In this document: positions 8,561-31,263 of the stretch, piece by piece
How the letters are laid out: every line of letters starts with the position of its first letter
How positions within the stretch are numbered: position 1 is the first letter of the stretch
DNA from: Salipiger mucosus DSM 16094
GTDB lineage: Bacteria; Pseudomonadota; Alphaproteobacteria; Rhodobacterales; Rhodobacteraceae
Assembly: GCF_000442255.1 (NCBI RefSeq)
Contig: NZ_KE557277.1
Coordinates: 274,836-338,835, forward strand
Reading direction: 5' to 3'
Length of the DNA: 64,000 nt
Position numbers and translations under genes: made by a program
The notes under the pieces: generated by a model
What the model saw: the letters and a program-made list of their open reading frames with translations, nothing else
The model's database searches: none
Told to the model about the DNA's origin: nothing

Positions 8561-8838
8561 GGAGGGCAGTCTGGGGTTGATGTGCAGCTTCGGTGGCGCT
8601 GGTGCCAGTCAACGCGCGAGATGAATGCGTTATCCCCAATACCACCCACTCCCTCTGTGATCATCTCCGTGGTGGCGAGCTCAGATGAGGGGGGCGGTGA
8701 AGTGCCTCAAGTGCTTGGGGCATGACCGCTGTCACCTCATTGGGCAGTGGACGGTGGCCGGAAAACTGTTCAGGCTCTGCTTTAATGATTGAAATGGTGT
8801 TCGTGTAAAATAGTGTGACTGAAGGGGGAGGGGCGATA

Positions 8839-11382
8839 GTGTCTTCATTACTCAAGTTTTTCCGAATTTCATTCTTTCTTTTTGTCTACTTCATCTTTTG
8901 CATGATCGTGGTGGTCACAGCCCTCCAGGGGTGGCCCGTGGGTGGCCAAATGTTGTTCGCATTCGGTGCTCCTATCATTTTGGTCTGGTGGCAAGAAAAG
9001 CGGAGATCGCGGAAAGTCGCTGCAAAAGCGCCAGCCGGGGGAAGTTCCGAAACTCGAACATCGCGACCTGAGTCGGTGCCGCGCCCAAGTGCCTACGACA
9101 AGCGTATCGAGCGTGAGCGCGAACGAACTCGCGAAGCCATTGCGTCCAAAGCGCCGGCTGCCGTTCAAGCCTATTCCCCACCAAAGCAGGACTACGGTGA
9201 AATCGTTCGGGTTGGAAAGGCTGCGGCGCCGGCACTTGCGGCCCTCGCAGAACGAAACCAGCCCTCACGAGTGGCGTCGAACGCATCGACCCGATCAACG
9301 AAAAGCGGGTGGGTTCCGTCAAGCGAAGCTGCTAGCGTGGCCGGCCGCAACATCGGTGGGATGGTCTATGTCGGCACGCCTCCCTTGTTGAACACCTACG
9401 GGTATCGTGACAAATGCCGAGCCTATATCGATCCGTCCCTGTCGGTCGCACGCTCTGGAGCCGACAAAGATGGTGAAGGTATGCCCTACTGGCCGGGGTA
9501 CTCGGATATCTCACCTCAGTGCCGGGCGACCTACCTTAATTGGTTGGCCAGCGGGCGAAACGATGCCTCATATAACCCCGGGTACATGTTCATGTACTTT
9601 TATGGGCTGGAGCGACGCTTCTTCGTCGATCAGTCCAACGAAGATGCCAAGGATATCGTCCAGGAAGTCCGGCGGCTGCAGTCACTTTACCCTGACAACC
9701 ACTCCGTCAGGCGCTATTTGGGCGAGTTCCTCGACATTGCGATGCTTGCCGAAACCGACCTCGACGCTATCGAGCCGATTTTAGAGAGGGAGGGCTGGGA
9801 ACTTCCGTTCTCACTCAAATACGCAATCGGAGCTCGGATTGACAAAGGCGAGAACCTGACAGCTGACTGGTTGCTGAGTTGGTTCATCTGCCATCCGGAA
9901 ACAAACCTGAGAACTCCCGCGACGCGGTGTCGCGACGAGTTCGTCGCTCTTTTCCGTATGCGGTTTGATCGGCGTTTTCCTGATGGGCTCAAAGTTACAA
10001 AACCCCGGAAATCACTCACGGCATCCTATCGGGCCGCCTCCAGCGAGTTTCAGGGGGCCGCCAACCCAACCGTCGACGGCAAGCCGGTTCCCGATATTTC
10101 CGGCCTGCGCAAACCGGTTGAGATTGCCCAAGAGTTGGCTGACGAGGTGATGACCGACCTCGACAAGCTCAGTCGCTTCCTGGGCCGAAACCCTGATGGT
10201 CGCGGAAGCGTGGAAGCGCACGCCTTGCTACCCTCTGAACTGTGGGATGCCTTCCCATCAGAGGAAATGGACCGCTTGAAATCTTGGGCAAGCACTATCG
10301 TCGATCGGGGGGGATTGGTGCCGCTTGAGGAGGTGATCGGACGTCTGGAGGGAGAAACGAGCGAGAAGATCGGGAAACGGCAGATGACAGGAGCGGCCGA
10401 TGCGCTCGCCCGCCTCGGTTTCGGTCTGGCGCCCGACCCTCGATTTGCGCTCCGGTCGCCCAAGGCGGAGGAGCCTGTTGTCCTGTTCAGCCTGGGCGAA
10501 CCCATCGAAAGACTGGAGGAAGTTTCCGACAGCTATCGAAGCGCTCTGATTGGATTGGCACTTGGGTCGTTCGTTGCTCATGCGGATGGTCGCATCGCGG
10601 ATCCTGAACGCAGGGCACTGGAAGATCAGGTTTCTGCCGCGTCCCTCAGCGATCAGGAACGCCGCAGGCTGCTTGCAAACCTTGAATGGTTTCTGGCCGT
10701 GCCACCGGACATGACGCTTCTGCGGCGCAAACTGAAGGAGGTGGGCCAAGACAGCCAGGCCGCTATGCGGGCAGCGCTGGTTGGTGCAGCACATGCCGAT
10801 GGCATTATTCACTCCGACGAAGTTGCAAGCATCGAGAAAATCTACAAGGCTTTGGGTCTAGATCCTGCGCTTGCCTACTCAGACCTGCATGCTGGCGAAG
10901 TTGCGGATGGTCCTCGCACTGTTCGTGCCTCGAAACCGGGTCGTCCGGGCGAAGCGATACCCGATCTTGAGAAAGCCAGCGGACCGAAACTCGACGCTTC
11001 GCGGATCGCAGCAATCCGTTCGGACACCGAGCGCGTGTCGTCCGTTCTCGGTCAGATTTTCGACGTCGAAGAGGAAGAAAGTGGTGCCTCCACGCCTGAC
11101 TACCAAAGCCAGGTGGCAGGGCTTGACCCGAAACACGGCGCCCTTGTCCTCGAAGTACTTACTCGGGAGCATTGGTCTGAGACCGAGTTCGAGAAGATCT
11201 GCGCCTCGCATGGATTGATGGCATCCGGGGCTTTGGAGGTCGTGAATGAATGGGCTTTTGAGACCTACGATGAAGCGCTGCTCGACGAGTATGATGGATA
11301 TGACGTGTCTCCGGAGATTGCGGAGGCGGTAAAAGAAAAGATGAGTGCGGAGGGCAGGGATGTCGAAGTTGAAACCACGTGA
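8839..11382 (+). CDS. sngA: TerB-domain membrane-anchored protein, Shango defence component A
   Basis: 847 residues from the GTG at 8839, chosen because GGGGGAGGGG ends about seven bases upstream; a GTG at 8815 would add eight residues. Two hydrophobic helices at the N-terminus anchor it in the membrane. After a charged linker, residues ~170-480 form a TerB-N domain (GMVYVGTPPLLN, YNPGYMFMYFYGLERRFF). A TerB core follows at ~560-685, with two HADG motifs (AHADGRIADPE, AHADGIIHSDE) that bind divalent metal. A TerB-C domain occupies the last ~130 residues (LDPKHGALVLEVLTREHWSE). The same order TerB protein, ATPase, helicase defines Shango, shown to protect against phages. It probably serves as sensor/effector at the membrane. 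It overlaps the next gene by 23 bases, an operon. Confidence 0.85.
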   Translation: MSSLLKFFRISFFLFVYFIFCMIVVVTALQGWPVGGQMLFAFGAPIILVWWQEKRRSRKVAAKAPAGGSSETRTSRPESVPRPSAYDKRIERERERTREAIASKAPAAVQAYSPPKQDYGEIVRVGKAAAPALAALAERNQPSRVASNASTRSTKSGWVPSSEAASVAGRNIGGMVYVGTPPLLNTYGYRDKCRAYIDPSLSVARSGADKDGEGMPYWPGYSDISPQCRATYLNWLASGRNDASYNPGYMFMYFYGLERRFFVDQSNEDAKDIVQEVRRLQSLYPDNHSVRRYLGEFLDIAMLAETDLDAIEPILEREGWELPFSLKYAIGARIDKGENLTADWLLSWFICHPETNLRTPATRCRDEFVALFRMRFDRRFPDGLKVTKPRKSLTASYRAASSEFQGAANPTVDGKPVPDISGLRKPVEIAQELADEVMTDLDKLSRFLGRNPDGRGSVEAHALLPSELWDAFPSEEMDRLKSWASTIVDRGGLVPLEEVIGRLEGETSEKIGKRQMTGAADALARLGFGLAPDPRFALRSPKAEEPVVLFSLGEPIERLEEVSDSYRSALIGLALGSFVAHADGRIADPERRALEDQVSAASLSDQERRRLLANLEWFLAVPPDMTLLRRKLKEVGQDSQAAMRAALVGAAHADGIIHSDEVASIEKIYKALGLDPALAYSDLHAGEVADGPRTVRASKPGRPGEAIPDLEKASGPKLDASRIAAIRSDTERVSSVLGQIFDVEEEESGASTPDYQSQVAGLDPKHGALVLEVLTREHWSETEFEKICASHGLMASGALEVVNEWAFETYDEALLDEYDGYDVSPEIAEAVKEKMSAEGRDVEVETT

Positions 11383-12667
11383 ACGCGATGCAATCGTACA
11401 GGCGCTTCGGGCCGGGGTCGTGCCCAAGCTCGGCCTGCGTCACATCCAGGTCGGCCGCGTCCGCGAGATTGAAGAGCTCGTCAAGGACATGGACCGGATA
11501 TCCGATGGCGGATCGGCGATCCGGTTCATCATCGGAGAATACGGATCGGGCAAGACGTTCTTCATGAATCTGATCCGTCTTGTCGCGCTTGAAAAGGGTC
11601 TGGTGGTGATGTTCGCGGACCTGGCGCCCGACCGGCGCATTCACGCGACCGGCGGGCAAGCCCGAGGCCTCTATGCAGAGATGGCCCGAAACCTGTCGAC
11701 ACGGACAAAGCCAGATGGCGGGGCCTTGGCCAGCGTGGTGGAGCGGTTTGTCAGCCAGGGACACCGCGATGCTGAGGAACGCGATGCGCCCACGGGGTCT
11801 GTCATTCGTGAACGCCTTGGTCACTTCGAAGAGCTCACCGGGGGGTTTGAATTCGCAGAGGTGATCCGGCGATATTGGGAAGGCCATGAGACCGGCGACG
11901 ACGAGTTGAAATCCGCTGCCTTGAGATGGCTGCGTGGTGAATTCGCCACACGCACCGACGCGCGCAAGGCGCTTGGAGTGCGAACGATCATCGACGATAC
12001 CAGTGTCTATGACCATCTGAAGCTGATGTCGGCATTCGTGTGTGAAGCCGGTTACAAAGGCTTGCTCGTCGGCCTCGACGAGATGGTGAACCTCTACAAG
12101 CTGACCTCGTCGCAGGCTCGCAATGCAAACTACGAACAGATCCTCCGGATCCTGAATGATGTGCTGCAGGGCAGTGCCGAGAACCTCGGATTTCTCATGG
12201 GCGGCACACCGGAATTCCTGATGAACACCCGTCGAGGGCTTTACAGCTACGAGGCCCTCCAGTCGCGTTTGGCCGAGAACACCTTCGCGCGAGACGGATT
12301 GGTCGACCTTTCAGGGCCCGTTGTCCGGCTGGCCAGCCTGACCCCTGAAGACCTCTTCGTTCTTTTGGCCAACGTTCGGCGGATCATGCAGGACGACGCC
12401 GGTGCTTTGCCGGACGACGCGCTGGAGGCCTTCATGGCACATTGTTCGGATCGGATCGGCGAGGCGTATTTCCGGACACCGCGCAATACGGTGACGGCCT
12501 TCGTGAACCTGCTTTCCGTGCTCGAGCAAAACCCCGGTGTCGAATGGAGCGATCTGATCGAAAAGATCGAGGTTTCCGAAGACCGCGGCGAAGACATGAC
12601 CGAGGTCGACGAGTCCACTGGTGCCGAAACCACCGGTGACGATGATCTGATCAGCTTCAAGCTCTGA
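11360..12667 (+). CDS. sngB: BREX-type ATP-binding protein (DUF2791), Shango component B
   Basis: 435 residues starting MSKLKPRERDAIVQALRAG inside the end of the preceding gene. Walker A is IGEYGSGKTFFMN (about residues 58-70), Walker B is LLVGLDEMVNLY (about 235-246), and the sensor region reads LGFLMGGTPEFL. These match the DUF2791/BREX-system ATP-binding domain family of STAND-like P-loop ATPases. In Shango the ATPase links the TerB protein to the helicase; all three are required in tested systems. The acidic C-terminus (EDRGEDMTEVDESTG) is probably disordered. An alternative assignment to BREX is unlikely because no pglX/pglZ gene is near. Confidence 0.85.
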   Translation: MSKLKPRERDAIVQALRAGVVPKLGLRHIQVGRVREIEELVKDMDRISDGGSAIRFIIGEYGSGKTFFMNLIRLVALEKGLVVMFADLAPDRRIHATGGQARGLYAEMARNLSTRTKPDGGALASVVERFVSQGHRDAEERDAPTGSVIRERLGHFEELTGGFEFAEVIRRYWEGHETGDDELKSAALRWLRGEFATRTDARKALGVRTIIDDTSVYDHLKLMSAFVCEAGYKGLLVGLDEMVNLYKLTSSQARNANYEQILRILNDVLQGSAENLGFLMGGTPEFLMNTRRGLYSYEALQSRLAENTFARDGLVDLSGPVVRLASLTPEDLFVLLANVRRIMQDDAGALPDDALEAFMAHCSDRIGEAYFRTPRNTVTAFVNLLSVLEQNPGVEWSDLIEKIEVSEDRGEDMTEVDESTGAETTGDDDLISFKL

Positions 12668-12672
12668 CGCCG

Positions 12673-14856
12673 ATGAGCAGTGCGTTCGACAAACTGGCGA
12701 GGCCTGTGCAGAAATGGATACGCCTGCAAGGATGGCGCGAGCTTCGCGACATCCAGGCGCGATCCATCCAGACGATCTGCGAGACCGATGCCGACTTGAT
12801 CGTTGCGGCTTCCACGGCGGGCGGAAAGACCGAGGCAGCGTTCCTGCCTTTGATTTCGCAGGTGTTTGACGAACCGTTCGACGGCACCGGCTTCGACCTG
12901 CTTTATATCGGTCCGCTGAAAGCCTTGATCACGGACCAGGCCATGCGGCTGGAGGGCATCTGCCAGGAAGCAGAGCTGCCGGTTGTTCCATGGCACGGGG
13001 ATGTTTCTCAATCGATCAAGACGCGCGCGCTGAAATCTCCAAAAGGGATCCTGCTGATAACTCCAGAGTCCCTTGAGGCACTGTTCATTCGTCGCGGTTT
13101 GGAAATTAGCCGCCTGTTTGGGGCCACGCGCGCGGTTGTTGTCGATGAGTTGCACACGGTTCTAGATAGCGAACGCGGTGTCCAGCTCCGTTCGTTGCTC
13201 ACAAGGCTCGAGCTCACGATAAAGCGCCCAATCCGTCGGATAGGTCTGTCAGCTACGCTGGGCGACATGGACCTCGCCAAGGCCTATCTTCGCCCTGACG
13301 CTGCAAACGCTGTCCAGCTCATAGAAGCAGATGGCGGCGAGGCTGAATTGAGGCTCCAGCTTCGCGGCTACGTATCAGGCGATGAGGACGAAAACAGCCC
13401 ATCCGCAACGCATGCCATCGCAGCCCATCTGTTCAAGCACCTTCGAGGCAGCGACAACCTCGTCTTCGCTGGGGCGAGGCAACGAGTCGAGATCTATGCA
13501 GATCGGCTGCGGGAACTCTGCGAGAGGGAACATCTGCCGCAGGAATTCTATCCTCACCACGCTAGCCTCTCCCGCGAACACCGAGACTTCGTGGAACGCC
13601 GCTTAAAGGACGCCGCAAAGCCGACAACTGCCGTCTGCACGTCGACGCTCGAGCTTGGAATCGACATCGGTGATGTGACCTGCGTGGCCCAAATCGGCGC
13701 GCCATTCAGCGTCGCCGCGTTGCGACAACGTCTCGGCCGGTCCGGCCGACGCGAGGGACAGCCAGCCGTCTTGCGGCAGTATGCCGTCGAGACTCAGTTG
13801 ACGCCAGAAAGCAGCTTCGTTGATCGACTTCGCCTTGGATTGATCCGGTCTATCGCGATGATAGACCTGTTGCTTGAGGGCTGGTGCGAACCGGCAAGAC
13901 CGCAGGCGCTTCATCTTTCGACGCTCGTCCATCAGATATTGTCGGTCATAGCACAACGCGGCGGTGCTTCTGCCAGTGTGGTCTACAGTATCCTGTGTCG
14001 CGAGGGCCCCTTTCGCAAGGTCACAACCGAAGTGTTCGCAGATGTGTTGCGTTCGATCGGTCATACCGAAACCGGTTTGATCGAACAGTCCGGAAGCGGA
14101 CTGCTACTCTTGGGACCTGCAGGCGAAAAGCTGGTCGAACACTACAGCTTCTACGCAGTGTTTAAGACGCCTGAGGAATTCCGCTTGGTAGCAGAAGGGA
14201 GGGATCTTGGGACCCTGCCGATCGACAATGTTCTTGCCCCAGGGATGCTTCTGATTTTCTCTGGGCGGCGGTGGGTGGTTCAGGAAATCCATGACCGCGA
14301 GAAGGTGATCATGGTCAAGCCCGCGAAAGCGGGCGTGCCTCCCGTCTTTGGCGGTGATCCAGGTGACATTCATGACAAGGTGATTGATCGAATGTTCGCA
14401 GTGCTCGAAGGAGGCACCCAACCGGCATACATGGACGCGGCTTCTCTAAAGATGCTGGCCGAAGCGCGTGCACATTATGACCAACTTGGGTTTCGAGCCA
14501 CGAATATCCAGGCTCTCGGCGAGCGTACATCGATCATCGCAACGCGAGTGGGGACGGTTAAGACGTCAACCCTGGCGCTCGCACTTAGAAGTGAGGGATT
14601 TTCAGTCGAGCAGCATGACGGGTTTCTGCTGGTGGAGGTCGGGGATGAAACACCCGATCTTCGAGGGCTGCTGGCCGATATTCGATCCGGCGAACCTGTC
14701 GACCTGTTCGCGGGAGCAGGAAACCTGATGTCGGAGAAGTTTCATCCATATCTTTCTAGCGCGCTTTTAGTTCTGGATGCAGCATCCTCAAAGTTGTCGG
14801 TACAAGCGCTTCCCGATGTGGTCGCAGCTATTGTCCGAAAAGGATCCTTCAATTGA
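12673..14856 (+). CDS. sngC: DEAD/DEAH-box helicase, Shango component C
   Basis: 727 residues beginning five bases after the ATPase stop. Superfamily 2 helicase motifs are in order: Q-like RDIQARSIQTI, Walker A AASTAGGKTEAAF (~45-57), Walker B VVVDELHTVLD (DELH at ~155), motif III SATLGD, then in the second RecA domain STLELGIDIGDV and motif VI RQRLGRSGRREGQ. The layout resembles Lhr-type helicases. The ~300-residue C-terminal part is not obviously homologous to known nucleases. As the third Shango gene it is expected to act on phage nucleic acid. About 90 bases after its stop an IS3 element has inserted, leaving the operon intact. Confidence 0.87.
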   Translation: MSSAFDKLARPVQKWIRLQGWRELRDIQARSIQTICETDADLIVAASTAGGKTEAAFLPLISQVFDEPFDGTGFDLLYIGPLKALITDQAMRLEGICQEAELPVVPWHGDVSQSIKTRALKSPKGILLITPESLEALFIRRGLEISRLFGATRAVVVDELHTVLDSERGVQLRSLLTRLELTIKRPIRRIGLSATLGDMDLAKAYLRPDAANAVQLIEADGGEAELRLQLRGYVSGDEDENSPSATHAIAAHLFKHLRGSDNLVFAGARQRVEIYADRLRELCEREHLPQEFYPHHASLSREHRDFVERRLKDAAKPTTAVCTSTLELGIDIGDVTCVAQIGAPFSVAALRQRLGRSGRREGQPAVLRQYAVETQLTPESSFVDRLRLGLIRSIAMIDLLLEGWCEPARPQALHLSTLVHQILSVIAQRGGASASVVYSILCREGPFRKVTTEVFADVLRSIGHTETGLIEQSGSGLLLLGPAGEKLVEHYSFYAVFKTPEEFRLVAEGRDLGTLPIDNVLAPGMLLIFSGRRWVVQEIHDREKVIMVKPAKAGVPPVFGGDPGDIHDKVIDRMFAVLEGGTQPAYMDAASLKMLAEARAHYDQLGFRATNIQALGERTSIIATRVGTVKTSTLALALRSEGFSVEQHDGFLLVEVGDETPDLRGLLADIRSGEPVDLFAGAGNLMSEKFHPYLSSALLVLDAASSKLSVQALPDVVAAIVRKGSFN

Positions 14857-16186: not shown

Positions 16187-16585
16187 ACTGCTCAAGCAAA
16201 CCGAGCCACCTCTAACATCAAGCGCGTTTGTCTCCGTCTCAGGCGACATGCGCCCCTTAAGCCGCACCCCAGACGCAGCCGTCACCCCAACCACCAGCGT
16301 ACTTTCCCCATAGGATGATCCAAGACCCCGCGGCTTCCTCCTTCCGAGGTTTGTCAACGTGGGCCGCCACCTCATGGCCGCCACCGTCACGCCGCGGCCC
16401 ACATCGAAAAACCTTCAGGGAAGCGGACGCTCGCTGCGTGTTGCACGAACGGCCGCTAAGCGCAGGTTGGAGAAGATAGGCATATCTTTTTGACAAGGCC
16501 GAGTAGCGCGGCGTCACGATGCGACGACGAGGCCTCCGTAGACCTTTGCGACTTCTTTCTCCCAAGCCTGATTGAACCAAGTCAT
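16187..16585. other. Intergenic; contains the displaced 3' tail of the drt2 reverse transcriptase
   Basis: Between the IS3 and IS5 elements. Bases 16582-16585 (TCAT) are the left target duplication of the IS5 copy. Reading the minus strand from 16585 down to 16514 continues the reverse transcriptase frame that was cut by the IS. It encodes TWFNQAWEKEVAKVYGGL plus four residues, then stops at 16514. The remaining ~330 bases show no gene I can support. Confidence 0.6.
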
Positions 16586-17757
16586 GGAAGGTCTGAACTA
16601 CGGCTTCGGCTTCGCCGACATCCGGCCATCCGGGCTGTGAAATCGGTGCGTGAGCCCGAGGCGCATTTGATTTCGCCGGATTTGGCATTGTTGAGGCCCC
16701 GAAACGGGGTCCTCGGACAGAGTCCGGCTCATACCATCAGCTTCCGTCGTACGAGGAACAGGTTGCCGAGGGCGAACAGCGTGAAGAGTTGCGCGCGGTT
16801 CTTCGCGAGGCCACAGTAGCGGGTCTTCAGATACCCGAATTGGCGCTTGAGCACGCGGAATGGATGCTCCACCCGCGCCCGCACCATCGCGATAATCCGA
16901 TTGATGTGCTCGTCGATGGGGTCCAGCGCAGCGCCCTTCGGCGCCTTCCGCATGACGCCCCAGAACTTGTCCGGGCCGGAGAAATGGGCCTCGCGCGCAG
17001 CGCTGACATAGCCCTTGTCCGCCCACACCGACGTCTCCTCGCCATGGAGGAGCTCATCCCAGACCTGGCTGTCATGCACCTTCGCCGTGGTGGTCTCGAG
17101 GCTATGCACGATGCCGCTCTCGGCATCGACGCCAACGTGCGCCTTCATCCCGAAGAACCAGTCATTGCCCTTCTTCGTTGACGACATCTCCGGATCGCGC
17201 GCCCCGGCTTCGTTCTTGGTCGAGGACGGCGCGTCGATGATCGTCGCATCGACCAGTGTGCCCGAGCGCAGCGTGATGCCCTGATCGGCCAGATGTTTGT
17301 TCACTTCAACGAACAAACGCTCCGTCAGCGCGTGCTTCTCCAGCAGGTGTCTGAAGTTCAGGATCGTCGTCTCATCCGGGACACGATCATCACCGAGTTC
17401 GATGCCTGCGAACCGGCGCATGGACTCGCTGTCGTAGAGCATCTCCTCAGCCATGGGATCGCTCAGCGCATACCATTGCTGCAGGAAATACACCCGCAGC
17501 ATCGTCTCCAGTGGCATCGGCGGCCGACCGCCCTTCGGCCCGACCTTCGGATAATGAGGCTCGATCAGCGCCAGCAGACGCATCCAAGGCACCACCGCGT
17601 CCATCTCCGCGAGAAACTTCTCACGCCGGGTCTGCTTCTTCTTCATCGCGTGGCGGAGACCGGGAAACGCAGGTTGCTTGGGCATCGGTGGGCATCCTTC
17701 TTCGTCTCGCCCAGTCTACCTCAACCCGGCCAAGGCGCGAGGTTTTTCAGACTCTCC
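16586..17757 (-). mobile_element. IS5-family insertion sequence, copy 1
   Basis: 1172-bp element with imperfect terminal repeats (ends GGAAGGTCTGAAC and, on the other strand, GGAGAGTCTGAAA) and a 4-bp target duplication TCAT at 16582-16585 and 17758-17761. The duplication length and the size fit the IS5 subgroup. It carries one transposase gene on the minus strand. A nearly identical copy in opposite orientation is at 34759-35930. This copy interrupts the C-terminal coding end of the reverse transcriptase. Confidence 0.93.
16729..17685 (-). CDS. IS5-family transposase
   Basis: 318 residues starting MPKQPAFPGLRHAMKKKQTR. It has the IS5 N-terminal domain (PMPLETMLRVYFLQQWYALSD), a DDE_Tnp_1 core (VDATIIDAPSSTKN for the first aspartate, VWADKGYVSAAREA for the second, and ARVEHPFRVLKRQFGY with the Y-(2)-R-(3)-E-type C1 signature region). 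Compared with the second copy it differs at one internal residue, YCGLAK versus YRGLAK, and at the last residue. The protein is full length and probably active. Confidence 0.95.
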   Translation of the reverse strand: MPKQPAFPGLRHAMKKKQTRREKFLAEMDAVVPWMRLLALIEPHYPKVGPKGGRPPMPLETMLRVYFLQQWYALSDPMAEEMLYDSESMRRFAGIELGDDRVPDETTILNFRHLLEKHALTERLFVEVNKHLADQGITLRSGTLVDATIIDAPSSTKNEAGARDPEMSSTKKGNDWFFGMKAHVGVDAESGIVHSLETTTAKVHDSQVWDELLHGEETSVWADKGYVSAAREAHFSGPDKFWGVMRKAPKGAALDPIDEHINRIIAMVRARVEHPFRVLKRQFGYLKTRYCGLAKNRAQLFTLFALGNLFLVRRKLMV

Positions 17758-19060
17758 TCATGTGTGGCTTCACCTGCTGCCTGATTTCTTTGCTGCCCAT
17801 CACGCCAGCCGCCTTGTAGGCGTATTTTAAGAAATTCCGGCGCTTTCCTAGGTGGGTATAGCGGCTGAGTACCTCACGCTTGAAAACCTGGAACGACGGA
17901 ATCTCTTTGCCTTTTGCCGCGACAAGTTTTGCGTGGACGCCGCGTCGCATTTTATGCCGGTACGCGTCGAGGGATGATGGTCGGATCAGCACCTTGTTGC
18001 CGTCAAACGTGAAACCAAGATACTGGATCGCCTTCGCTGAAATGAGACGACCACCTTGGAAGTGAGCGTGGTCGGTTTTGTCGACCGACATAGCAAGTCC
18101 AAAATCGGCCAAAATCTTCTCTACAACCGAGACAACGTGATCGACTTTGCTGCCCAGGGGAAGAATGACGGCAATATCGTCCGAATAGCGGCGATAGGAC
18201 CCGCCGTAGCGTCCAACCCATGCCATCATTTCTCGGTCAAATGTCCGCAGGTAGATGTTGGCGTATAGACCAGAAATTGGCGTCCCTTGTGGGATGCCGA
18301 ACGTCTCTTCATGCTTCCGAACCAGCCCGGCTTTGCGCCCCCTTACGTGCTGGACAAAATCGGCTGGAGAGCAGACCCGACCGTGGCCGTTTCGCTTCTT
18401 TCCCAGTACGGCGTCTAAATCCTCCGTCTCAACCCACGAGTAGTGGGTCACATTTTTCCAAACTGTGCCGTGGTGGCCGTTTAGCCGAGTTTCGCCTATT
18501 AAGCCCGCGACTTCATCTCGCAACAGCGTGTGGTCAAGGCAATCAAAGAAGCCGGAGATGTCCATTGCCACCACGGTACAATCCTGACGGTGCACGATCT
18601 CGTCAAACAGCGATTTGGCGTGGTGGATGCTTGTACCGCCGCCCTTGCGATAGGCCAGAACAGCGCCAGCGGTCCCGTCTTCTGCCAGCGCTCGTTCATA
18701 AAACGGGTTTAGATGTTCCGCATATGCCTGCAAGTATGCAGCGTCGGCGTGTCCGGCGAACCGGATCGGACGAGGCTTCTCTTTCACTTTTCGGATGAAA
18801 TTCCCGTCTGCATCCCGAAGCCATTTGCCATCGGCACCTTTCTGACGGATGTATCGACGAGCGAGGTCCGTGAATCCGAGCATCGGCAAGAAACGGTGCG
18901 GCTCGAGCTCTTGCGTGAAATCAATCGCCAGTTCCCGCTCGCTTTCGGGCAACGGCAGATCGAAATGCTTATAGCGCCGCTCCTTCGAAATGGCGGGCAA
19001 CACAAAATCATCGGTCGATGGATCGAATTCGTTCTCGGTAGGCAGGTAAAACCCGGGCAT
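17747..19060 (-). CDS. drt2: DRT2-type antiviral reverse transcriptase, C-terminus altered by IS insertion
   Basis: 437 residues from the ATG at 19060 (MPGFYLPTENEF); a TTG at 19078 is an alternative. RT motifs: VVAMDISGFFDCLDH (catalytic Asp ~167), FGIPQGTPISGLYANIY (~255-270), YRRYSDDIAVIL with YSDD at 292-295, and AIQYLGFTFDG (~345). The N-terminal LPAISKERRYKHFDLPL and the C-terminal RYTHLGKRRNFLKYAYKAA-type thumb match the DRT2 defence family, not group II introns or retrons. DRT2 copies an upstream ncRNA by rolling circle into concatemeric cDNA that encodes a toxic repetitive protein. The natural end KPHM-TWFNQAWEKEV is split by an IS5 element: 22 residues are lost and replaced by RRV. 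Whether activity survives is unknown. Confidence 0.82.
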   Translation of the reverse strand: MPGFYLPTENEFDPSTDDFVLPAISKERRYKHFDLPLPESERELAIDFTQELEPHRFLPMLGFTDLARRYIRQKGADGKWLRDADGNFIRKVKEKPRPIRFAGHADAAYLQAYAEHLNPFYERALAEDGTAGAVLAYRKGGGTSIHHAKSLFDEIVHRQDCTVVAMDISGFFDCLDHTLLRDEVAGLIGETRLNGHHGTVWKNVTHYSWVETEDLDAVLGKKRNGHGRVCSPADFVQHVRGRKAGLVRKHEETFGIPQGTPISGLYANIYLRTFDREMMAWVGRYGGSYRRYSDDIAVILPLGSKVDHVVSVVEKILADFGLAMSVDKTDHAHFQGGRLISAKAIQYLGFTFDGNKVLIRPSSLDAYRHKMRRGVHAKLVAAKGKEIPSFQVFKREVLSRYTHLGKRRNFLKYAYKAAGVMGSKEIRQQVKPHMRRV

Positions 19061-19087
19061 AGCGACTCCGTTCGTCAAATGCCCGGG
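19052..19087 (-). promoter_or_regulatory. Hairpin enclosing the drt2 ribosome-binding site and start codon
   Basis: On the minus strand CCCGGGCAT (19087-19079) pairs perfectly with ATGCCCGGG (19060-19052). The drt2 start codon lies in the 3' arm and CGGAG lies in the 18-base loop. Such a structure would hold back translation unless opened, or could mark the 3' end of the upstream ncRNA. The pairing is seen directly; the role is inferred. Confidence 0.5.
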
Positions 19088-19300
19088 CTATTTAACCTTG
19101 CTCCCATCAGCAGGTGCGCAATTGCACCCTCCGGTACGAGATAACCTTGCGTGGTATAGTATCACCACGATGTGCCTGGAAGGATGCGACATGACCGAGA
19201 TCAAGCCGACCCGGAACCCGCTGGCGCAGATAGCGCTTGCGGTCCTTAACACTGGTCATCCGGGCCCAATGTCCCGGGGCCTCACTCAGATGGGTGCTCA
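19061..19300 (-). ncRNA. Candidate DRT2 template ncRNA with a stop-free 99-nt repeat unit
   Basis: The ~280 bases upstream of drt2 hold no conserved gene but are rich in local structure. Hairpins include CCGGG/CCCGG around 19259-19276, CGTGGT/ACCACG around 19150-19169 and GGTGC/GCACC around 19112-19127, with a 9-bp direct repeat GCAAGGTTA at 19150-19142 and 19101-19093. Known DRT2 loci keep their template ncRNA exactly here. On the transcript strand ACA occurs at 19272-19270 and 19173-19171, 99 bases apart, and the frame running through both is open from 19301 to 19107. Joining ACA to ACA would give an endless 33-codon repeat. Ends of the RNA are estimates. Confidence 0.6.
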
Positions 19301-19361
19301 CAGACAGTTTACAAGGCGTTACCGAAATTTTTATTCGCGTTTTGTTCTTTTTCTTTTGGGG

Positions 19362-20657
19362 TCACTTGGCCCAGGCTGGCAGTGCTCCCGCTTCAACCAA
19401 GCGTTGACGCGTAAATGGGTCAAGCGCCTCGGGCAGCAACTCGCGCAGTAACCGCCATTCAGGCGACGCCTCGCTGACCTGTTCGATATGGCCGAGCCTG
19501 TGGCCGTTGATCGACCGCCCAAGGTGTTCCCCGACGCTGCCCTTTAGCAAGCCGCGCTGTGACGTGTTCTCGATCAGCGCAGTCAGCAAGCGTGCATATG
19601 GGGCGAGTGTTCCAGAGTTCTGGAAGGTGTTCAGCATGGCGCGAATGTTCGGGTGCTCACTTGCGAAGTTCTCCGGCTTGCCAGCAGCTTCCGCGACGAT
19701 GGAGAACGCGGCGGCGACTAAGCGGTCAACGCACTGCCGTTCCGCGAATGGCTCAAGGTCCGCCAACGGAAGGTCGCTCATTCTATCGCCCCACGCTCGC
19801 AGAGCGCGGAAGTAGGGCAAGCGTTTCGACTTGATCCGTTCGAGCAACGGCCCTGCAAGTCGATCCTCAAGAAAGGGAAGGCAGGACTCCGGGAATGTCA
19901 GAGCATCGAAGCGGACCAAGACAGGAGCGTCGTATCCTGCGCCATCCGACATATAGCAGGTCAGGACGAGCGTGCGCTGCTCGCGCGATGCGTTGATCGC
20001 CTGCTGATCCAGGACGAAGGCATTGCCCCTGTGCCGATGCACAACATCCGAAACCGCCTGCGGCACGCGTTCGGGATCGAAAGACGACAACACCCAAAGC
20101 AGCGGAATGCCTTCACGGTCGTAGTGGATGCAACGCTGCGACACCTCCGTCTGGAAGGTGTGGGACATTTGGTATTCGACGGCGAAGCGCCCGAAGTCTC
20201 GCCAGTCAACCAGAACGTCGGGGTAGCGCCCATGCTTGCCTTCTGTGGGCGGCAGATACTCATCTACCTTCGTTTCTTCGCACCGCTCGTCCAACGCAGC
20301 GAGTTCCGAAATGAGTTCGCACATGCTGCGGTGCATTTTGGATTCTTGCTGGCCGCGATACTGGGCCGCCCGCGCATCATTCGGGTGCATGTTCTTCCCG
20401 GAATACCAAGGGCAGCGCGGATCAGAGCCCTGGTAGTGTGCGAACAACGGGCGCCCGTGTGAGGTAGTAATGTATATTTGCCCGTGGCAGGCGACGCAGC
20501 GGGCAACCAGACCGTCTTTCCCGTTGCGGTGATCCGTAATGCCTGCCCGTAAGCTCTCCCATCCGTCGCGTGGCATGGCGAGCAAATCGCGGGCCGATAG
20601 TGGGCCTAGGTCTTCAAAGATTACTTCTTCAATTATTCGGCGAGGTTGATTGGACAT
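19362..20657 (-). CDS. CoiA-like / DUF6035-type putative PD-(D/E)xK nuclease
   Basis: 431 residues. The N-terminal region has a CoiA-style zinc-ribbon-like segment (ARCVACHGQIYITTSHGRPLFAHY, then CPWYSGKN). Residues ~115-200 carry a restriction-endonuclease-like signature: RYPDVLVDWRDFGRFAVEYQMS, where PD...D and ExQ replace the classical PD-(D/E)xK, followed by FQTEVSQR. Competence protein CoiA and DUF6035 proteins share this arrangement. The C-terminal ~230 residues are helical and not recognised. The gene lies directly upstream of the reverse transcriptase/ncRNA unit, in the same direction. It is inferred to be a cytoplasmic nuclease, possibly an independent defence gene; the substrate is unknown. 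Confidence 0.6.
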   Translation of the reverse strand: MSNQPRRIIEEVIFEDLGPLSARDLLAMPRDGWESLRAGITDHRNGKDGLVARCVACHGQIYITTSHGRPLFAHYQGSDPRCPWYSGKNMHPNDARAAQYRGQQESKMHRSMCELISELAALDERCEETKVDEYLPPTEGKHGRYPDVLVDWRDFGRFAVEYQMSHTFQTEVSQRCIHYDREGIPLLWVLSSFDPERVPQAVSDVVHRHRGNAFVLDQQAINASREQRTLVLTCYMSDGAGYDAPVLVRFDALTFPESCLPFLEDRLAGPLLERIKSKRLPYFRALRAWGDRMSDLPLADLEPFAERQCVDRLVAAAFSIVAEAAGKPENFASEHPNIRAMLNTFQNSGTLAPYARLLTALIENTSQRGLLKGSVGEHLGRSINGHRLGHIEQVSEASPEWRLLRELLPEALDPFTRQRLVEAGALPAWAK

Positions 20658-24126: not shown

Positions 24127-25467
24127 CTAAAGCTTGTCGAACACTGAGCCCATCCTCGGCTCGAACAGCCTTTCATATGTCTTGAGCAGATAGGTGTCTG
24201 TCATACCGGCCACGAAATCGCTGATGTGCCGGAGGTCGCCACCTGCTGCTTCGAATTTCGCATGCGCATCGCGCGGCAGCAAACGCTCTGGATCTGATTG
24301 CATGGCTTCAAAGACCGAGACAACCATGGATTGCCCCTTGAATTCCAGATGCTGCACGCCCGGACTGCGAATAACCACCTGCATTACAAGCTCTTTCAGG
24401 GCCTTGAGGAAGCGGGCGTGACCTTCTGGAATCTCGACGCGCCAGCGGAGCAAGGGTTCTTGGAATTCGGGGCGTTCGATGAAACGGACGGGTGTAATCA
24501 GATGATTGACCCACCGGCTGATCCAGCGCTTGCGCGTGTTGCTGTCGCCGAACAGCCCGTCGACCATGGCTTCGTATGGGGCGTTGCTCTCGGTGGGGCC
24601 CTTCAGCCGCCTTTCTTCGACAAAGCTCTTGCAGGATTCCTCAGGAACGAGGTCTCTGAATTGGCGCTCTGTGACGAGCCGAAGGGCAATGGCATCCTCC
24701 AAATCATGGACCCCGTAGGCAATATCGTCTGCGACGTCCATGATGCTGCAATCGAGAGACTTATGTAGAGTGCGGGCATGCTTGCCTTCGCGCTTTTCGA
24801 TAGAAGTGAAGGCATCTCGATCAGCATCGCAGAGCGGTTCGAGAATCCAGTCGACGACGTCGGTTTCGCTGTCGAGATAGCCCTTTGGCGGCGTCGAGGC
24901 TTTCAAGTCAATGGTTCGCAGAACCGAAGGGCCCCCCTGCAACTGCGGGCGCAGTTCGGAGTTCCGCAACACTGAGAGTGCAACAGGGTATTTCAAGACG
25001 CCAAGCATGGAACGGCGTGACAGGTTGGCCCCCGCAGCGGCAGAGAAGTTTTCGAGCCGTGCCAGGAGACGCAGGGTCTGGCCGTTGCCCTCGAACCCTT
25101 CCGCATCGCGCATGCAGTAGTTCAGTGCGACTTCACCGCCATGGCCGAAAGGCGGGTGGCCCAGGTCGTGGGAGCAGGCGATCGCATGGATTTGGCTGCG
25201 GTCCGGGAGACTTGCCGTTGCCGAGTGATCGGCGAAACTGCGCGCGAGCTGGACTGCGAGCCCTCCCGCGATCTGAGCCACTTCCAAGGAATGCGTCAGG
25301 CGAGTGCGATAGAAATCACTGTCGCCGAGATTCAGGATCTGGGTCTTACCCTGCAATCTTCTGAATGATGCCGAATGGATCACCCGGCCATAGTCTACAT
25401 CCCTGATATTCCGGGCATCTTCCTTCTGCGGGTTCCAGGCCTCTCGGCGAGCATTCCAGGTACTCAA
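24127..25467 (-). CDS. dGTPase-family dNTP triphosphohydrolase
   Basis: 446 residues. The N-terminus RDVDYGRVIHSASFRRLQGKTQ is the conserved dGTPase opening. Metal-binding HD-domain residues are in RLTHSLEVAQIA (His), ACSHDLGHPPFGHGGE (His-Asp) and MDVADDIAYGVHDLEDA (Asp). These enzymes hydrolyse dGTP or other dNTPs to nucleoside and triphosphate. Stand-alone family members deplete dNTPs to block phage replication. Only 24 bases separate it from the upstream SMC-like ATPase gene, so it is the third gene of an operon with a Mre11/Rad50-like pair. That pairing suggests a DNA-damage or phage-defence role rather than housekeeping nucleotide balance. Confidence 0.88.
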   Translation of the reverse strand: MSTWNARREAWNPQKEDARNIRDVDYGRVIHSASFRRLQGKTQILNLGDSDFYRTRLTHSLEVAQIAGGLAVQLARSFADHSATASLPDRSQIHAIACSHDLGHPPFGHGGEVALNYCMRDAEGFEGNGQTLRLLARLENFSAAAGANLSRRSMLGVLKYPVALSVLRNSELRPQLQGGPSVLRTIDLKASTPPKGYLDSETDVVDWILEPLCDADRDAFTSIEKREGKHARTLHKSLDCSIMDVADDIAYGVHDLEDAIALRLVTERQFRDLVPEESCKSFVEERRLKGPTESNAPYEAMVDGLFGDSNTRKRWISRWVNHLITPVRFIERPEFQEPLLRWRVEIPEGHARFLKALKELVMQVVIRSPGVQHLEFKGQSMVVSVFEAMQSDPERLLPRDAHAKFEAAGGDLRHISDFVAGMTDTYLLKTYERLFEPRMGSVFDKL

Positions 25468-25491
25468 ATCAACTCTCCTCGGCGCTATGTC

Positions 25492-28400
25492 TTAAAGTTC
25501 ATGAATGACCGGAGGCGTTGCGCAAACGCTCTTTGCGATCTCGACCACGTGACGGTGGTGGGTCAGGTAGATTGCTTGGCCGCGTCCGCCGATGGCTTCC
25601 ATGACGCGGCAGGCGGCGCTGGTGCGCGCCTCGTCGAAGGTTTCGAAGATGTCGTCGCAAAAGAACGGAAGCCTTGTGCCCTGCGCGACAAGTTGTTCAT
25701 GGGCCGCTGCCCGTAGAGCTAAGTATAGCTGGAAGCGCGTGCCCTTCGACATCTCAGCCGCACGCTTGCTGACACCGTTGCCATCGACGGCGAGCAAAAT
25801 CTCGGACTCCTTGTCGATCTGGGTGCTCAGCGTCGGATAGGCGCCTTGCGTGAGACTGGCGAAGCATTCTTCCGTCGCGGTCAACATGCCACTGCGATGG
25901 ATCTCGCGGTAGCGCCGGATGGCGTCGGAGGCGAGATGATGGCCCAGGGAAAGTTCGAGATGCTCCAAGGCAGCGTCTTCGAGCTGCAGTTCCAGCGTCG
26001 CTTTCTGCTCGATCAAGTCCGCAACCGTGTCGTCGCCCTTCACCTCGGCAAGGGCATATTCGGCGGCTGTGCGGTTCTGAATGGCCTGGGTTAGCTCATC
26101 CTCGGCATGGGTAAGATCGGATCGGTTGCTGTCGAGTTCGCCCTCCAATGCGGCGACCGAGGTCTCTGCAAGCTGGGCGCGGGCTGTCTCGATGTCGGTC
26201 GTGCCCAGTTCGGACAGGACCTGGCGGGTGATTTTCTCCAGCGCGACGCGGTTCTCGATTGCTTTCTGCGTGCGGATTGCGGCCTCGCGCAGGGCGTCGA
26301 TATCGCCCGATGTAATCGTATCGGGGAAGAGCGTGGCGATTGTCTCGACCTCATGGTCGATGGCGTTTTGCCTATCCTTGTTTTTGATCAACTCGGCCTC
26401 TGCAGTGTCTGTGGAGGTGTCGAGTTTTCTGGCGGCCTCCTGGGCCGTGCGCGCTTGTTCCGTCAGGGCTTTGAGTGCGGCGAATGTCTTTGCCGCCGTT
26501 GCGTGGGGGTCCTGCTCATGGGCGCATGCCAGGCTGTCGACCTCCTGGGCGAATTGCTTTTGATCTGCCTGCATGGTTGAGATCCGACGCTCGGCCGCGG
26601 CGCGTGCGTTTTCGTGTTCGCGCAAAGCGCGCAGGGGCTCCAGCGAGGCCTCCAGGCGTTCGGGGGGCAATGCCTCTCCGAGAAGGTCGTGGATCATTGC
26701 GAGCCAAGTCCTCTTCGCATCCTCCCTTGCCTTAAGCGCGTCTGCGTGACGCTCTTCGCGCCGGGCAAGATCCCGCTGCGCCTGTCGCAGGGTTGCCTCA
26801 GCCTTCGCATGGGCGTCGACTTGCTTGCGGTCTTCCTCGGCCTGGCGCCGGGCCGCAGCCAGCGCGCCGGTCAGGTCTGCTGGGGGAAAGGGCAGGGTCC
26901 GGGTCAGCTCGGCCAGCAGGGCGTCCGCTTGTTGGAGGATGGAATGATTGACCTCTTCTGTGTCGCGCAGGGCCTGGGCATCGTCGCTGGCCGCCTCGTG
27001 GCTTCGCCGCCAGTCCAGCCATTCGGCTGGCGTGATGCTGTGTGGGAGGCCGATTTGAGCTGCCGCCGCGCTGACCGAGGTCTCGATATTGGTGCGGTCT
27101 TCACGAAGGGTTTCCAGGCGTTTGTCGGCCTGAGCCGCACGGGCGCGGGCTTGGGCTTCGGCCTGGCCGATTTCGCGGAGCTGTGCCAGTTCGCGGGACT
27201 GCGCCAATCGCGCCTCGGCAGCGATATCATGCCCTTGCATCGCCTCGTGGAAGTCGGCGGCGGTCTGTCTGTCCAAGGCGGCAAGATGCTCCGCCCAGCG
27301 TGCATCGCGCCGCGCGCGCAGATCCTCAGCATCGGCATCCGAGATGAGCTTCGCGTCCCGGGCCAGTGATTTGGCCTGAGCCCCGCGGGCCTCCGCATCC
27401 TCCAGATGCTCGTCGCGCTTCTCCGTCGTCGTGCGCAGGTCGTGAAGCAAGTCCTGGTGGCGCTCGGCCCAGCTGGTTACTTGGTGGCGGGAGGTCGGGC
27501 AGGCAGGCAGATGATCGAAAGTGACGCCTGCGAATGAGAGCGCAGCCAGGGACCGCCGCGCCTTGATCTTCATATTCGCGATCGCCTGTTGCGCTGCGGC
27601 GTAGGCAGGGGCGAGGGTCTCCGCATCGAAGCGCTGCAGAATATCTGCTACCCGTGGGCGTTGCTCATCCGCGGGCGCGCCATCCTGCATGGCTTCGGTC
27701 GCGGCGATCACCCGCTCCTTCAATTCGGCGGTTTCGCGCGCCTCGATCTTCTCTTGAGAAATAGTCGCGCGAAAAGTTTCCCTGGCACTCTCCAGAGACG
27801 CAAGATCGGCGCCCGACAGGACCAGCCCTTTCAGATCGGCGTCAGGCGAGGTGACCCCAAGATCCCATGCGGCCTGCTGCATAGATGCCTCCGCGGCCTG
27901 CCGTTCGTCCTCGCGCCTGTCGAGGTCGAGCTGTGCGGTGCGATCCCGCGCGGCGAGGTCCTCTAGCGCCGCTAGCGTGGTCGAGAGATCAAGAAGTTTC
28001 GGATCCAGAGCGAGGGATTCGCGATCTGCCCTGAGGCTCGCGATCTCCTCGGTCAAGCGTGCGATATTCTGTGTGGCCAGCCCGCGATCTCTGTGTAGCT
28101 CGATCAGCCGTTCCGGATCGAAATCCAGATGATCGGGATAGGTCGCGAAAGGGGCAATCGCCTGTTCCAGGTCCCGTATCTCGCCCATCAGGGGCAGGGC
28201 ACGCCGCTGCGCCTCCATGCGCGCCTTTGTTAGATTCAGCGCATCCCGCGTCTTGCGCGCCTCCCGTTCGGCCTCTTGCGCCTTCCCCAGATCCCGCTTG
28301 AGGGCCTTCCAGGCGCTGGCGGTCACGTCTCGGTCTTTGATCTGCTTTTCCAAATCGGCCAAGGCGCGTTTCAACTCGGCCATGCGGGTGGTGCGTCCGC

Positions 28401-28929
28401 GTTTTTTCCATAGCGCGTCGGCCCGCTCGCGGACGCCGTCCAGAACGCTGCTAAGGTCGGCCACGCCCGCTGCAGCGGAGAAAAGCAGTCGCCCGATATC
28501 CCCTTCGGCATTCGCGATCTCTTCGCCGCCGCGTTCGATCGTCTCGTCGTCGAGGCAGAGCAGGCGGCGGTAATCCTCTTCGGACAATCCCGCGAGATGG
28601 GCTGACAGGGCAGCCTCCGGCAGCGCGGTGCCGGTCGCGTCGACCAGCGAACCGCTGCGCGTCGGCAGCCGCGTGAAATCACGCAAGACACCGTCGATAT
28701 CCAGCCTGGCCGAGACTTGGAGGTTATTGCGCGGATGCTTGAAAGCATAGCCCTCGCGCAGCGGGAAACCGTAGAATAGCCGTAGGACGGCTTCCATCGT
28801 GGTGGTCTTGCCGGCTTCGTTCGGGCCATAGATGATGTGAAAATCATGGCCATCGGAGGCCGATCCAAAGTCGAATTGCCGGTCGGTGAAATGGCCGAAA
28901 CGGTCCAGGGAAAGGCGTTGGATCCGCAT
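25492..28929 (-). CDS. SMC/Rad50-like AAA ATPase (YhaN family)
   Basis: 1145 residues. Walker A GPNEAGKTTTMEAVLRLFYG lies near residue 33-45. Between ~180 and ~1020 there are long coiled-coil stretches rich in Glu, Ala, Arg and Gln. The C-terminal head has the ABC signature MSKGTRFQLYLALR and Walker B LPFFCDDIFETFDEAR, then YLTHHRHV with the switch histidine. This is the YhaN/SbcC-like organisation; no CxxC zinc hook is evident. It overlaps the upstream nuclease gene by ATGA, so they form a nuclease-ATPase complex like SbcCD/Mre11-Rad50, which processes DNA ends and hairpins in the cytoplasm. Its transcription continues into the dGTPase gene. Confidence 0.88.
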   Translation of the reverse strand: MRIQRLSLDRFGHFTDRQFDFGSASDGHDFHIIYGPNEAGKTTTMEAVLRLFYGFPLREGYAFKHPRNNLQVSARLDIDGVLRDFTRLPTRSGSLVDATGTALPEAALSAHLAGLSEEDYRRLLCLDDETIERGGEEIANAEGDIGRLLFSAAAGVADLSSVLDGVRERADALWKKRGRTTRMAELKRALADLEKQIKDRDVTASAWKALKRDLGKAQEAEREARKTRDALNLTKARMEAQRRALPLMGEIRDLEQAIAPFATYPDHLDFDPERLIELHRDRGLATQNIARLTEEIASLRADRESLALDPKLLDLSTTLAALEDLAARDRTAQLDLDRREDERQAAEASMQQAAWDLGVTSPDADLKGLVLSGADLASLESARETFRATISQEKIEARETAELKERVIAATEAMQDGAPADEQRPRVADILQRFDAETLAPAYAAAQQAIANMKIKARRSLAALSFAGVTFDHLPACPTSRHQVTSWAERHQDLLHDLRTTTEKRDEHLEDAEARGAQAKSLARDAKLISDADAEDLRARRDARWAEHLAALDRQTAADFHEAMQGHDIAAEARLAQSRELAQLREIGQAEAQARARAAQADKRLETLREDRTNIETSVSAAAAQIGLPHSITPAEWLDWRRSHEAASDDAQALRDTEEVNHSILQQADALLAELTRTLPFPPADLTGALAAARRQAEEDRKQVDAHAKAEATLRQAQRDLARREERHADALKAREDAKRTWLAMIHDLLGEALPPERLEASLEPLRALREHENARAAAERRISTMQADQKQFAQEVDSLACAHEQDPHATAAKTFAALKALTEQARTAQEAARKLDTSTDTAEAELIKNKDRQNAIDHEVETIATLFPDTITSGDIDALREAAIRTQKAIENRVALEKITRQVLSELGTTDIETARAQLAETSVAALEGELDSNRSDLTHAEDELTQAIQNRTAAEYALAEVKGDDTVADLIEQKATLELQLEDAALEHLELSLGHHLASDAIRRYREIHRSGMLTATEECFASLTQGAYPTLSTQIDKESEILLAVDGNGVSKRAAEMSKGTRFQLYLALRAAAHEQLVAQGTRLPFFCDDIFETFDEARTSAACRVMEAIGGRGQAIYLTHHRHVVEIAKSVCATPPVIHEL

Positions 28930-31135: not shown

Positions 31136-31263
31136 GCGCGCCTCGGATGCAGGATGAAATACAGATTTGAAGTCAAAACGACCCTTGGCATTGCGTCAAG
31201 ACGTGACATTGCCAAGATCATCGAATCTCCGCTATCTGGCGCGAAATCTGTATGCCCACCTGC

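What the first reader, a model, noticed from the sequence alone, without database searches (positions are those of the whole stretch)
19107..19301. Candidate Neo-type repeat unit hidden in the leader of the DRT2 reverse transcriptase
DRT2 enzymes are known to copy an upstream ncRNA by rolling circle and thereby assemble a stop-free repetitive gene. Here, on the transcript strand, two ACA triplets (19272-19270 and 19173-19171) bracket exactly 99 nt, a multiple of three. The frame through both is open from 19301 to 19107. Joining the second ACA to the first keeps the frame (GCA then CAT TGG), so an unlimited number of copies would stay open. The predicted unit is 33 residues and begins HWARMTSVKDRKRYLRQ, basic and helix-prone. 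I know of no description of such a unit from alphaproteobacteria. The known Klebsiella unit is about 120 nt.
Basis: partly seen in the sequence, partly recalled or inferred. Interest (0 to 1): 0.85.

Follow-up and report, generated by a model that had tools for sequence, protein, structure and literature searches.

The report
Hidden antisense repeat gene in DRT2 leader
The RNA in front of this bacterial anti-phage reverse transcriptase appears to hide a repeat unit for a gene that exists only after copying, but on the opposite strand and between different endpoints from those first proposed, and it seems to lack the copy-joining motif of the one well-studied system.

Summary
Its ACA-1 sits in a variable hairpin loop (in register in 1 of 15 homologs), and its frame has stops inside the proposed unit in 2 of 13 relatives. 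On the other strand one frame is stop-free in 15 of 15 homologs across a predicted 111-117 nt unit; indels there are multiples of three. It has a conserved Shine-Dalgarno and ATG, and permuted -35/-10 elements that a junction would place 17 bp apart, in the codon phase seen in E. coli and other alphaproteobacterial DRT2s. Predicted window unit: + 19147-19260, 114 nt, 38 codons. No ACA jump pair is conserved; five other alphaproteobacterial systems have CGU(U) pairs, one Paracoccus relative GGU/GGU, this clade mostly the imperfect GAU/GGU, so the exact junction is a prediction. An IS interrupts this RT gene near its 3' end.

The parts
17747..19060 (-). DRT2 reverse transcriptase (437 aa from ATG 19060), YSDD active site; 3' end altered by an IS insertion
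   Evidence: PADLOC Drt2 E 1.8e-121; PDB 9c0i KpnDRT2 E 3.6e-68; IS flanks
19051..19282 (-). predicted ncRNA (about 230 nt; 5' end inferred, 3' end taken as the terminator-like hairpin)
   Evidence: conserved block in 15 homologs; no Rfam match
19260..19277 (-).
   Evidence: 96% of cells paired, no compensatory change
19147..19260 (+). predicted neo repeat unit as read in the concatemeric cDNA: 114 nt, 38 codons, AWYSITTMCLEGCDMTEIKPTRNPLAQIALAVLNTGHL
   Evidence: stop-free across the in-silico junction in 15 of 15 homologs, length 0 mod 3 in 15 of 15; permutation control
19246..19251 (+). -35-like TTAACA of the junction promoter (end of unit)
   Evidence: TTAACA in 14 of 15, TAAACA in L022; same role as TTGACA in other DRT2s
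19152..19160 (+). extended -10-like TGGTATAGT (start of unit); 17 bp from the -35 only across the repeat junction
   Evidence: TGGTAT in 14 of 15, TGGTAC in L034; TGGTATAAT in L008 and L009
19178..19184 (+). Shine-Dalgarno GGAAGGA of neo
   Evidence: GAAGG or GGAGG upstream of the in-frame ATG in 15 of 15
19191..19193 (+). predicted neo start codon ATG
   Evidence: in-frame ATG at the aligned place in 15 of 15
19258..19260 (-). candidate jump motif 1, GAU (template 5' end)
   Evidence: register x=9; CGUU at the same register in L008, L009, L042, L043
19144..19146 (-). candidate jump motif 2, GGU (just 3' of the template)
   Evidence: register y=8; GGU in 15 of 15
19151..19168 (-). RNA hairpin GUGGU/ACCAC that carries the -10 element
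   Evidence: all 5 pairs invariant in 15 of 15, so not itself supported by covariation
19113..19128 (-). variable scaffold hairpin (GGUGC/GCACC) with covariation
   Evidence: 4 of 5 pairs with changes on both sides
19051..19088 (-). 3' hairpin followed by U run; its 3' arm is the RT start codon and first codons (AUG CCC GGG)
   Evidence: 10 pairs, 2 with a compensatory change, in L034
19288..19315 (-). probable ncRNA/RT promoter, CTTG ... CACCCATCT, RpoH-like (inference)
   Evidence: CTTG in 14 of 14 rows; importance of TTG for RpoH promoters in passages of PMC3441632

Best explanation
The locus encodes a DRT2-type system. The RT binds the upstream ncRNA, copies its central part (about 19260 down to 19147, minus strand) and returns to the template start, giving a concatemeric cDNA. 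Each junction brings a -35-like element (end of one copy) 17 bp from an extended -10 (start of the next), creating a promoter. The transcript, antisense to the ncRNA, carries a Shine-Dalgarno and ATG in every repeat and a stop-free frame of 38 codons per repeat: an alphaproteobacterial Neo. Return to the template start would not use the ACA pair of Klebsiella DRT2 but a short pair at another register (CGU(U)/CGU(U) in other alphaproteobacteria, GGU/GGU in one Paracoccus, GAU/GGU with a T.G wobble here). Shown here: RT identity, conserved RNA, open antisense frame, conserved start and promoter elements. Inferred: copying, jumping, second strand, transcription, translation, toxicity, exact junction.
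For: RT. Antisense polarity and promoter permutation of published neo. One frame of the antisense strand is stop-free in 14 of 14 and, across the predicted junction, in 15 of 15, unit 111, 114 or 117 nt. Permuting alignment columns kept all 15 open in 4 of 2000 (variable columns) or 17 of 2000 (all gap-free columns) for that one frame. The four kinds of indel in the template are 3 or 6 nt, while loops outside it also vary by 1-2 nt. SD and in-frame ATG 15 of 15; -35 and -10 phases relative to the frame (1,0) in the 15 homologs, three Kp-type controls and five other alpha systems. An exact-repeat scan recovered the known ACA register in the 3 Kp-type controls and CGU(U) at (9,8) in 5 alpha systems; dinucleotide shuffles reached that score at those registers in 31 of 3400. 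In L042 and L043 the depositors' small antisense CDS starts at locus position 593, which is the predicted neo ATG there (my arithmetic). Neo-frame GRAVY mean 0.35, random open units -0.52. RNA covariation.
Against: The strict exact-repeat scan does not return the (9,8) solution in the window's own clade: it gives another one (CCGGA, 129 nt) in window and L015, unrelated hits in L016 and L023 and nothing in the other 10 of 14. GAU/GGU is an imperfect pair, GCU/GGU in L024 is worse, and by hand estimate about one such wobble match is expected by chance among the 22 registers tried. Choosing a 17-bp spacer fixes the unit length, so spacer and length are not independent. Codon positions vary almost equally (17, 16, 20 of 36 variable), so there is no clear sign of protein-level selection. 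Window GRAVY is reached by 6% of random units. AlphaFold of the unit is low confidence (pLDDT 55, two helices). 9 of the 17 systems gave no solution of score 14 at either register. The window's RT is IS-interrupted, so this copy may be inactive.
Confidence: 0.72

Rival explanations
1. One reading: a 99-nt unit between the two ACA triplets, read on the ncRNA strand, giving a basic 33-residue repeat.
For: Two ACA triplets 99 nt apart and an open joined frame in the window.
Against: Published neo is antisense to the ncRNA. ACA-1 in register in 1 of 15. Stops inside the unit in 2 of 13 relatives. Sense-strand peptide properties opposite to known Neo. I did not search the sense strand for a junction promoter.
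Confidence: 0.03
2. Same antisense neo frame, but a different junction, for example CCGGA/CCGGA (129 nt), AGG/AGG (99 nt), CGC/CGC (90 nt) or a structure-guided jump without homology.
For: CCGGA is a 5-nt exact pair at 129 nt in the window and L015, and 4 nt of it are shared in 11 of 14 rows; CGC, AGG and GUG pairs are conserved in 14 of 14 and leave 0 mod 3 in the window. The jump homology at (9,8) is imperfect.
Against: CCGGA fails in L019 and L025 and would not use the conserved TGGTAT as its -10; AGG and CGC leave the -35 outside the unit and GUG leaves the -10 outside it. In L025 the ACC after GGU lies 1 nt further off than in the window (sequences), which hints that this stretch is not under frame constraint.
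Confidence: 0.2
3. There is no Neo here: the RT makes repetitive cDNA whose DNA itself is the effector (as in DRT9 or DRT10), and the open frame is a by-product of RNA constraint.
For: Class 2 DRTs with repetitive products that are not described as genes exist (PMC12632851 passages); codon-position signal is weak.
Against: Only triplet indels in the template, SD/ATG and permuted promoter conserved in phase with E. coli and alpha DRT2; permutation control.
Confidence: 0.12

Closest known systems
KpnDRT2 and its close homologs (Tang et al. PMC11100668; Wilkinson et al. PMC12039810)
   Same: RT family, single RT gene with upstream structured ncRNA, 5' hairpin then template then 3' scaffold with a GC-rich hairpin, antisense stop-free frame, permuted -35/-10 with 17-bp junction spacer, same frame phase (controls L038-L040), unit length a multiple of three
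   Different: RT distant (the close relative from Ketogulonicigenium is 35.6% identical to the Klebsiella RT); no conserved ACA pair at the template ends; register (x=9, y=8) instead of (6, 11); TTAACA and TGGTATnnT instead of TTGACA and TATAAT; the 3' RNA hairpin overlaps the RT start codons
Other alphaproteobacterial DRT2s found here (L008, L009, L012 from the window's own family; L042 Rhizobium; L043 Neorhizobium)
   Same: register (9, 8), 17-bp spacer, frame phase; extended -10 TGGTAT in L008 and L009
   Different: perfect CGUU/CGUU pair (CGU in L012), units of 129-138 nt, RT 32-41% identical
DRT10 / DRT9
   Same: class 2 RTs that make repetitive cDNA from an ncRNA (PMC12632851 passages)
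   Different: protein-primed products, no reconstituted gene mentioned in the passages seen; the window RT matches Drt2 far better than other DRT profiles

Membership tests
DRT2 (UG2) family | RT matches the Drt2 profile above other DRT profiles | tested here: met
   Drt2 E 1.8e-121 and 1.6e-99; next a general RT model 8.8e-23 and RT_UG17 7.9e-21
DRT2 (UG2) family | RT without further domains | tested here: met
   only RVT_1 in Pfam
DRT2 (UG2) family | structured ncRNA immediately upstream, same strand | tested here: met
   conserved block and covariation in 15 homologs
DRT2 (UG2) family | repetitive cDNA made on phage infection; defence | not testable with these tools
   needs experiment
KpnDRT2-type Neo system | ACA-1 and ACA-2 at the two ends of the template | tested here: not met
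   ACA-1 in register in 1 of 15; control systems L038-L040 do show it
KpnDRT2-type Neo system | antisense frame without stops through the repeat junction, unit length a multiple of three | tested here: met
   15 of 15 for the predicted unit; depends on the inferred junction
KpnDRT2-type Neo system | sigma70 promoter reconstituted across the junction, 17-bp spacer, RBS and start downstream | tested here: inconclusive
   window -35 5/6 and -10 5/6 with TGn, order and phase as in the controls, but the spacer of 17 was used to choose the junction; weaker -10 in L034 and L024
KpnDRT2-type Neo system | short homology between template 5' end and the base after the template 3' end | tested here: inconclusive
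   GAU/GGU in 13, GCU/GGU in 1, GGU/GGU in 1 of 15
KpnDRT2-type Neo system | Neo protein made and growth-arresting | not testable with these tools
   needs experiment

The most novel reading that the evidence does not exclude
Alphaproteobacterial DRT2 systems make Neo-type genes with a different template-jump code: the ACA pair and its register are not fixed. What selection keeps is the 17-bp promoter spacer, the codon phase and the triplet length across the junction. The Rhodobacterales clade of the window uses G(A/G)U with GGU and tolerates a wobble at the jump, and it folds the 3' end of its guide RNA out of the RT start codons.
Probability: 0.45. Interest if true: 0.68.

Novelty: new variant of a known kind. 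Interest (0 to 1): 0.6.

Why it matters
Tang et al. report that Neo proteins were hard to annotate in divergent DRT2 clades and leave open alternative mechanisms. Here a divergent clade yields a specific, testable Neo prediction with strand, frame, start codon, promoter and junction. It suggests what is essential in gene assembly by template jumping (promoter spacing and frame) and what can drift (the jump motif). It also shows that such units should be searched for on the strand opposite to the ncRNA.

Tried and rejected
Exact jump homology in the clade: the 3-nt pairs conserved in 14 of 14 (CGC 90 nt, AGG 99 nt, GUG 84 nt) were set aside because the unit would lose the -35 or the -10. ACC/ACC (13 of 14 at one offset) gives 121 nt, not a multiple of three. 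CCGGA (129 nt) is not conserved in all rows. Spacers 16 and 18 give 113 and 115 nt in the window (output partly cut). Viral-contig scans with the window RT or its alignment found no relative. Rfam has no match in the window at gathering threshold or in 19030-19330 up to E 1. AlphaFold of the 37-aa unit was too uncertain to use.

L034 was added to the 14 rows for and is also one of the 17 systems (where its weak -10 fell below the cut-off). Those 17 are all that I had cut out beside the 14, misses included.

Full report
What was claimed and what is there. The minus-strand frame 19301-19107 is open, ACA stands at 19272-19270 and 19173-19171, and the 99-nt joined unit has one open frame. The RT at 17747-19078 is a Drt2 by profile (E 1.8e-121) and by the solved Klebsiella enzyme (E 3.6e-68); RVT_1 is its only Pfam domain. 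The start is most likely ATG 19060, giving 437 aa.

The strand. Of Tang et al. (PMC11100668) I read most of the Results, the first part of the figure legends and the Discussion; of Wilkinson et al. (PMC12039810) the Main Text, Bioinformatics and Discussion. Both place neo on the strand opposite to the ncRNA. The first ACA is part of the template and the second lies just after it. The -35 and -10 elements are permuted in the genome and come together at 17 bp only across a repeat junction.

Homologs. Searches of 390 genomes of the order, 394 of the family and 125 of one genus (drawn sets that overlap in part), one scan of genome contigs and one of plasmids gave 14 distinct close relatives of 51-86% RT identity: L013, L015-L025 (11 loci), L006 and L034. 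A search of 385 genomes of the class at E 1e-40 added one distant RT, L030. With the window the close relatives form the 15-row set; one search aligned 14 of them, all 15. A block from about 19282 to the RT start is conserved. Four helices that I chose by eye on this alignment were tested: 98.3% of cells pair, 6 pairs have changes on both sides (0-3 of 500 shuffles reach four of the five measures; the fifth, further pair types, is reached by 472 of 500), and sliding the arms drops pairing to 26-44%. Most of the covariation lies in the variable scaffold hairpin; SL1 and the -10 hairpin show no compensatory change.

ACA-1 lies in the SL1 loop, which varies in sequence and by 1-2 nt in length. 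Only 3 of 15 rows have any ACA in that 5' part, and only the window in that register (for L017 and L020 the script's distance was wrong, and I count 94 nt by hand).

The antisense frame. In 14 of 14 rows one antisense frame is free of stops while the other two are broken. For the unit defined below it stays open through the in-silico junction in 15 of 15, with lengths 111 (6 rows), 114 (5) and 117 (4), all multiples of three. Shuffling columns of the alignment, which keeps relatedness, left all 15 open in 4 of 2000 trials (variable columns) and 17 of 2000 (all gap-free columns), for one given frame. The in-phase sense frame has stops in 5 of 15. Variable sites are spread almost evenly over codon positions (17, 16, 20 of 36), so protein-level selection is not shown.

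Start and promoter. Read on the + strand, GGAAGGA (19178-19184) precedes ATG 19191; an SD and an in-frame ATG occur in 15 of 15. TGGTATAGT (19152-19160) is an extended -10 and TTAACA (19246-19251) a -35. In the genome they are in the wrong order, as in Klebsiella. If a junction puts them 17 bp apart, the window unit is 114 nt; spacers 16 or 18 would give 113 or 115. Relative to the frame, -35 and -10 fall at codon phases 1 and 0 in all 15, in three Kp-type controls (L038 from IMG/VR, L039 and L040 from E. coli) and in five other alpha systems.

The jump. A scan for -35, -10, a 17-bp spacer, an exact repeat of at least 3 nt at the junction and an open frame recovered ACA at x=6, y=11 in the three controls, and CGUU (CGU in L012) at x=9, y=8 in L008, L009, L012, L042 and L043. 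Of 17 systems 8 scored at least 14 at these registers; 31 of 3400 shuffles did. The other nine did not: L010, L011, L030, L034, L041, L044, L045, L046 and L047. Among the 14 rows the strict scan gives no (9,8) solution. Window and L015 return CCGGA with 129 nt instead, which fails in other rows. At (9,8) the clade has GAU/GGU in 13 rows, GCU/GGU in L024 and GGU/GGU in L034; a cDNA end ATC can pair with GGU through one T.G wobble. Taken alone this match is, by hand estimate, about what chance gives over the 22 registers tried at spacer 17, although none of the other 21 reaches three wobble-allowed matches in more than 3 of 14 rows. It is favoured because the register was fixed independently by the CGU(U) systems and because L034 matches exactly. 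I give the exact junction about even odds, and the antisense frame itself much better odds.

An annotation that fits. In the Rhizobium and Neorhizobium loci the depositors annotate a small hypothetical protein antisense to the leader (L042 593-465, L043 593-459). The units map to locus 500-628 in both, so the in-frame ATG at unit index 35 is position 593: the annotated start codon is the predicted neo start.

Protein. The predicted repeat is AWYSITTMCLEGCDMTEIKPTRNPLAQIALAVLNTGHL. Its GRAVY is 0.25 (clade mean 0.35), against -0.52 for random open units of the same composition; 6% of random units reach the window's value. The in-phase sense peptide has GRAVY -1.03 and pI 11.6. Wilkinson et al. 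report a hydrophobic bias and Tang et al. helices. AlphaFold of the 37-aa linear stretch gives two helices at pLDDT 55, too weak to rest on.

RNA 3' end and RT start. The last hairpin (19088-19051) uses AUG CCC GGG, the first RT codons, as its 3' arm and is followed by U residues. In L034 two pairs change on both sides although the protein changes. In the Kp-type loci a similar GC-rich hairpin lies upstream of the RT start. This suggests that RT translation and the end of the ncRNA are linked; that is inference.

State of this copy. An IS (about 17758-16586) sits in the 3' end of the RT gene. Directly beyond it a frame reads TWFNQAWEKEVAKVYGGLVVAS and stop, like the ends of relatives' RTs. Nine near-full copies of this IS (94-100% identical, this one included) are in the genome. 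The window's copy may therefore be inactive; the arguments above rest on the relatives.

Novelty. My literature searches (listings, open-licence PMC papers only) found the two DRT2 papers and later papers that mention DRT2. The word alphaproteobacteria does not occur in the main text of the two papers, nor do Rhizobium and, as searched, Rhodobacter or Paracoccus. Tang et al. say that Neo was hard to annotate in divergent clades and that alternative mechanisms are possible. Supplementary tables were not available to me, so some of these systems may be listed there. I rate this a new variant of a known kind.

Noticed in passing
window 16586-17758 (-), with 16514-16582 (-) beyond it: An IS with a DDE transposase (16729-17685) interrupts the 3' end of drt2; the gene's last 22 codons lie beyond it. 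Nine near-full copies of this IS are in the genome, one of them elsewhere in the window at about 34759-35930.
   Followed up: yes
window 8815-14856 (+), 24127-32298 (-): Defence island: SngA, SngB and SngC (PADLOC; the Shango system by recall), a dGTPase-type defence protein, an AbiEii protein, and an AAA_27/SMC-type ATPase next to a phosphoesterase (SbcC/SbcD-like by inference) flank drt2.
   Followed up: partly
window 19288-19315 (-): A conserved CTTG and a CNCCYA-like element stand just upstream of the ncRNA in the rows and look like an RpoH-type promoter; stress could then change ncRNA supply (inference).
   Followed up: partly
L042 465-593 (-) and L043 459-593 (-): In Rhizobium and Neorhizobium records a small hypothetical protein is annotated antisense to the leader; its start codon coincides with the predicted neo start, so gene callers already pick up the first part of the frame.
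   Followed up: partly
window 19362-20657 (-): The gene just upstream of the leader carries a CoiA-like nuclease domain (Pfam E 1.5e-6); in L013 the upstream genes are others, the remaining loci were not examined for this.
   Followed up: no
L045 (Azospirillum brasilense), leader: A GAAG/GAAG pair at register (5,12) with a perfect -35, 132 nt and an open frame: perhaps a third jump code, or chance.
   Followed up: no
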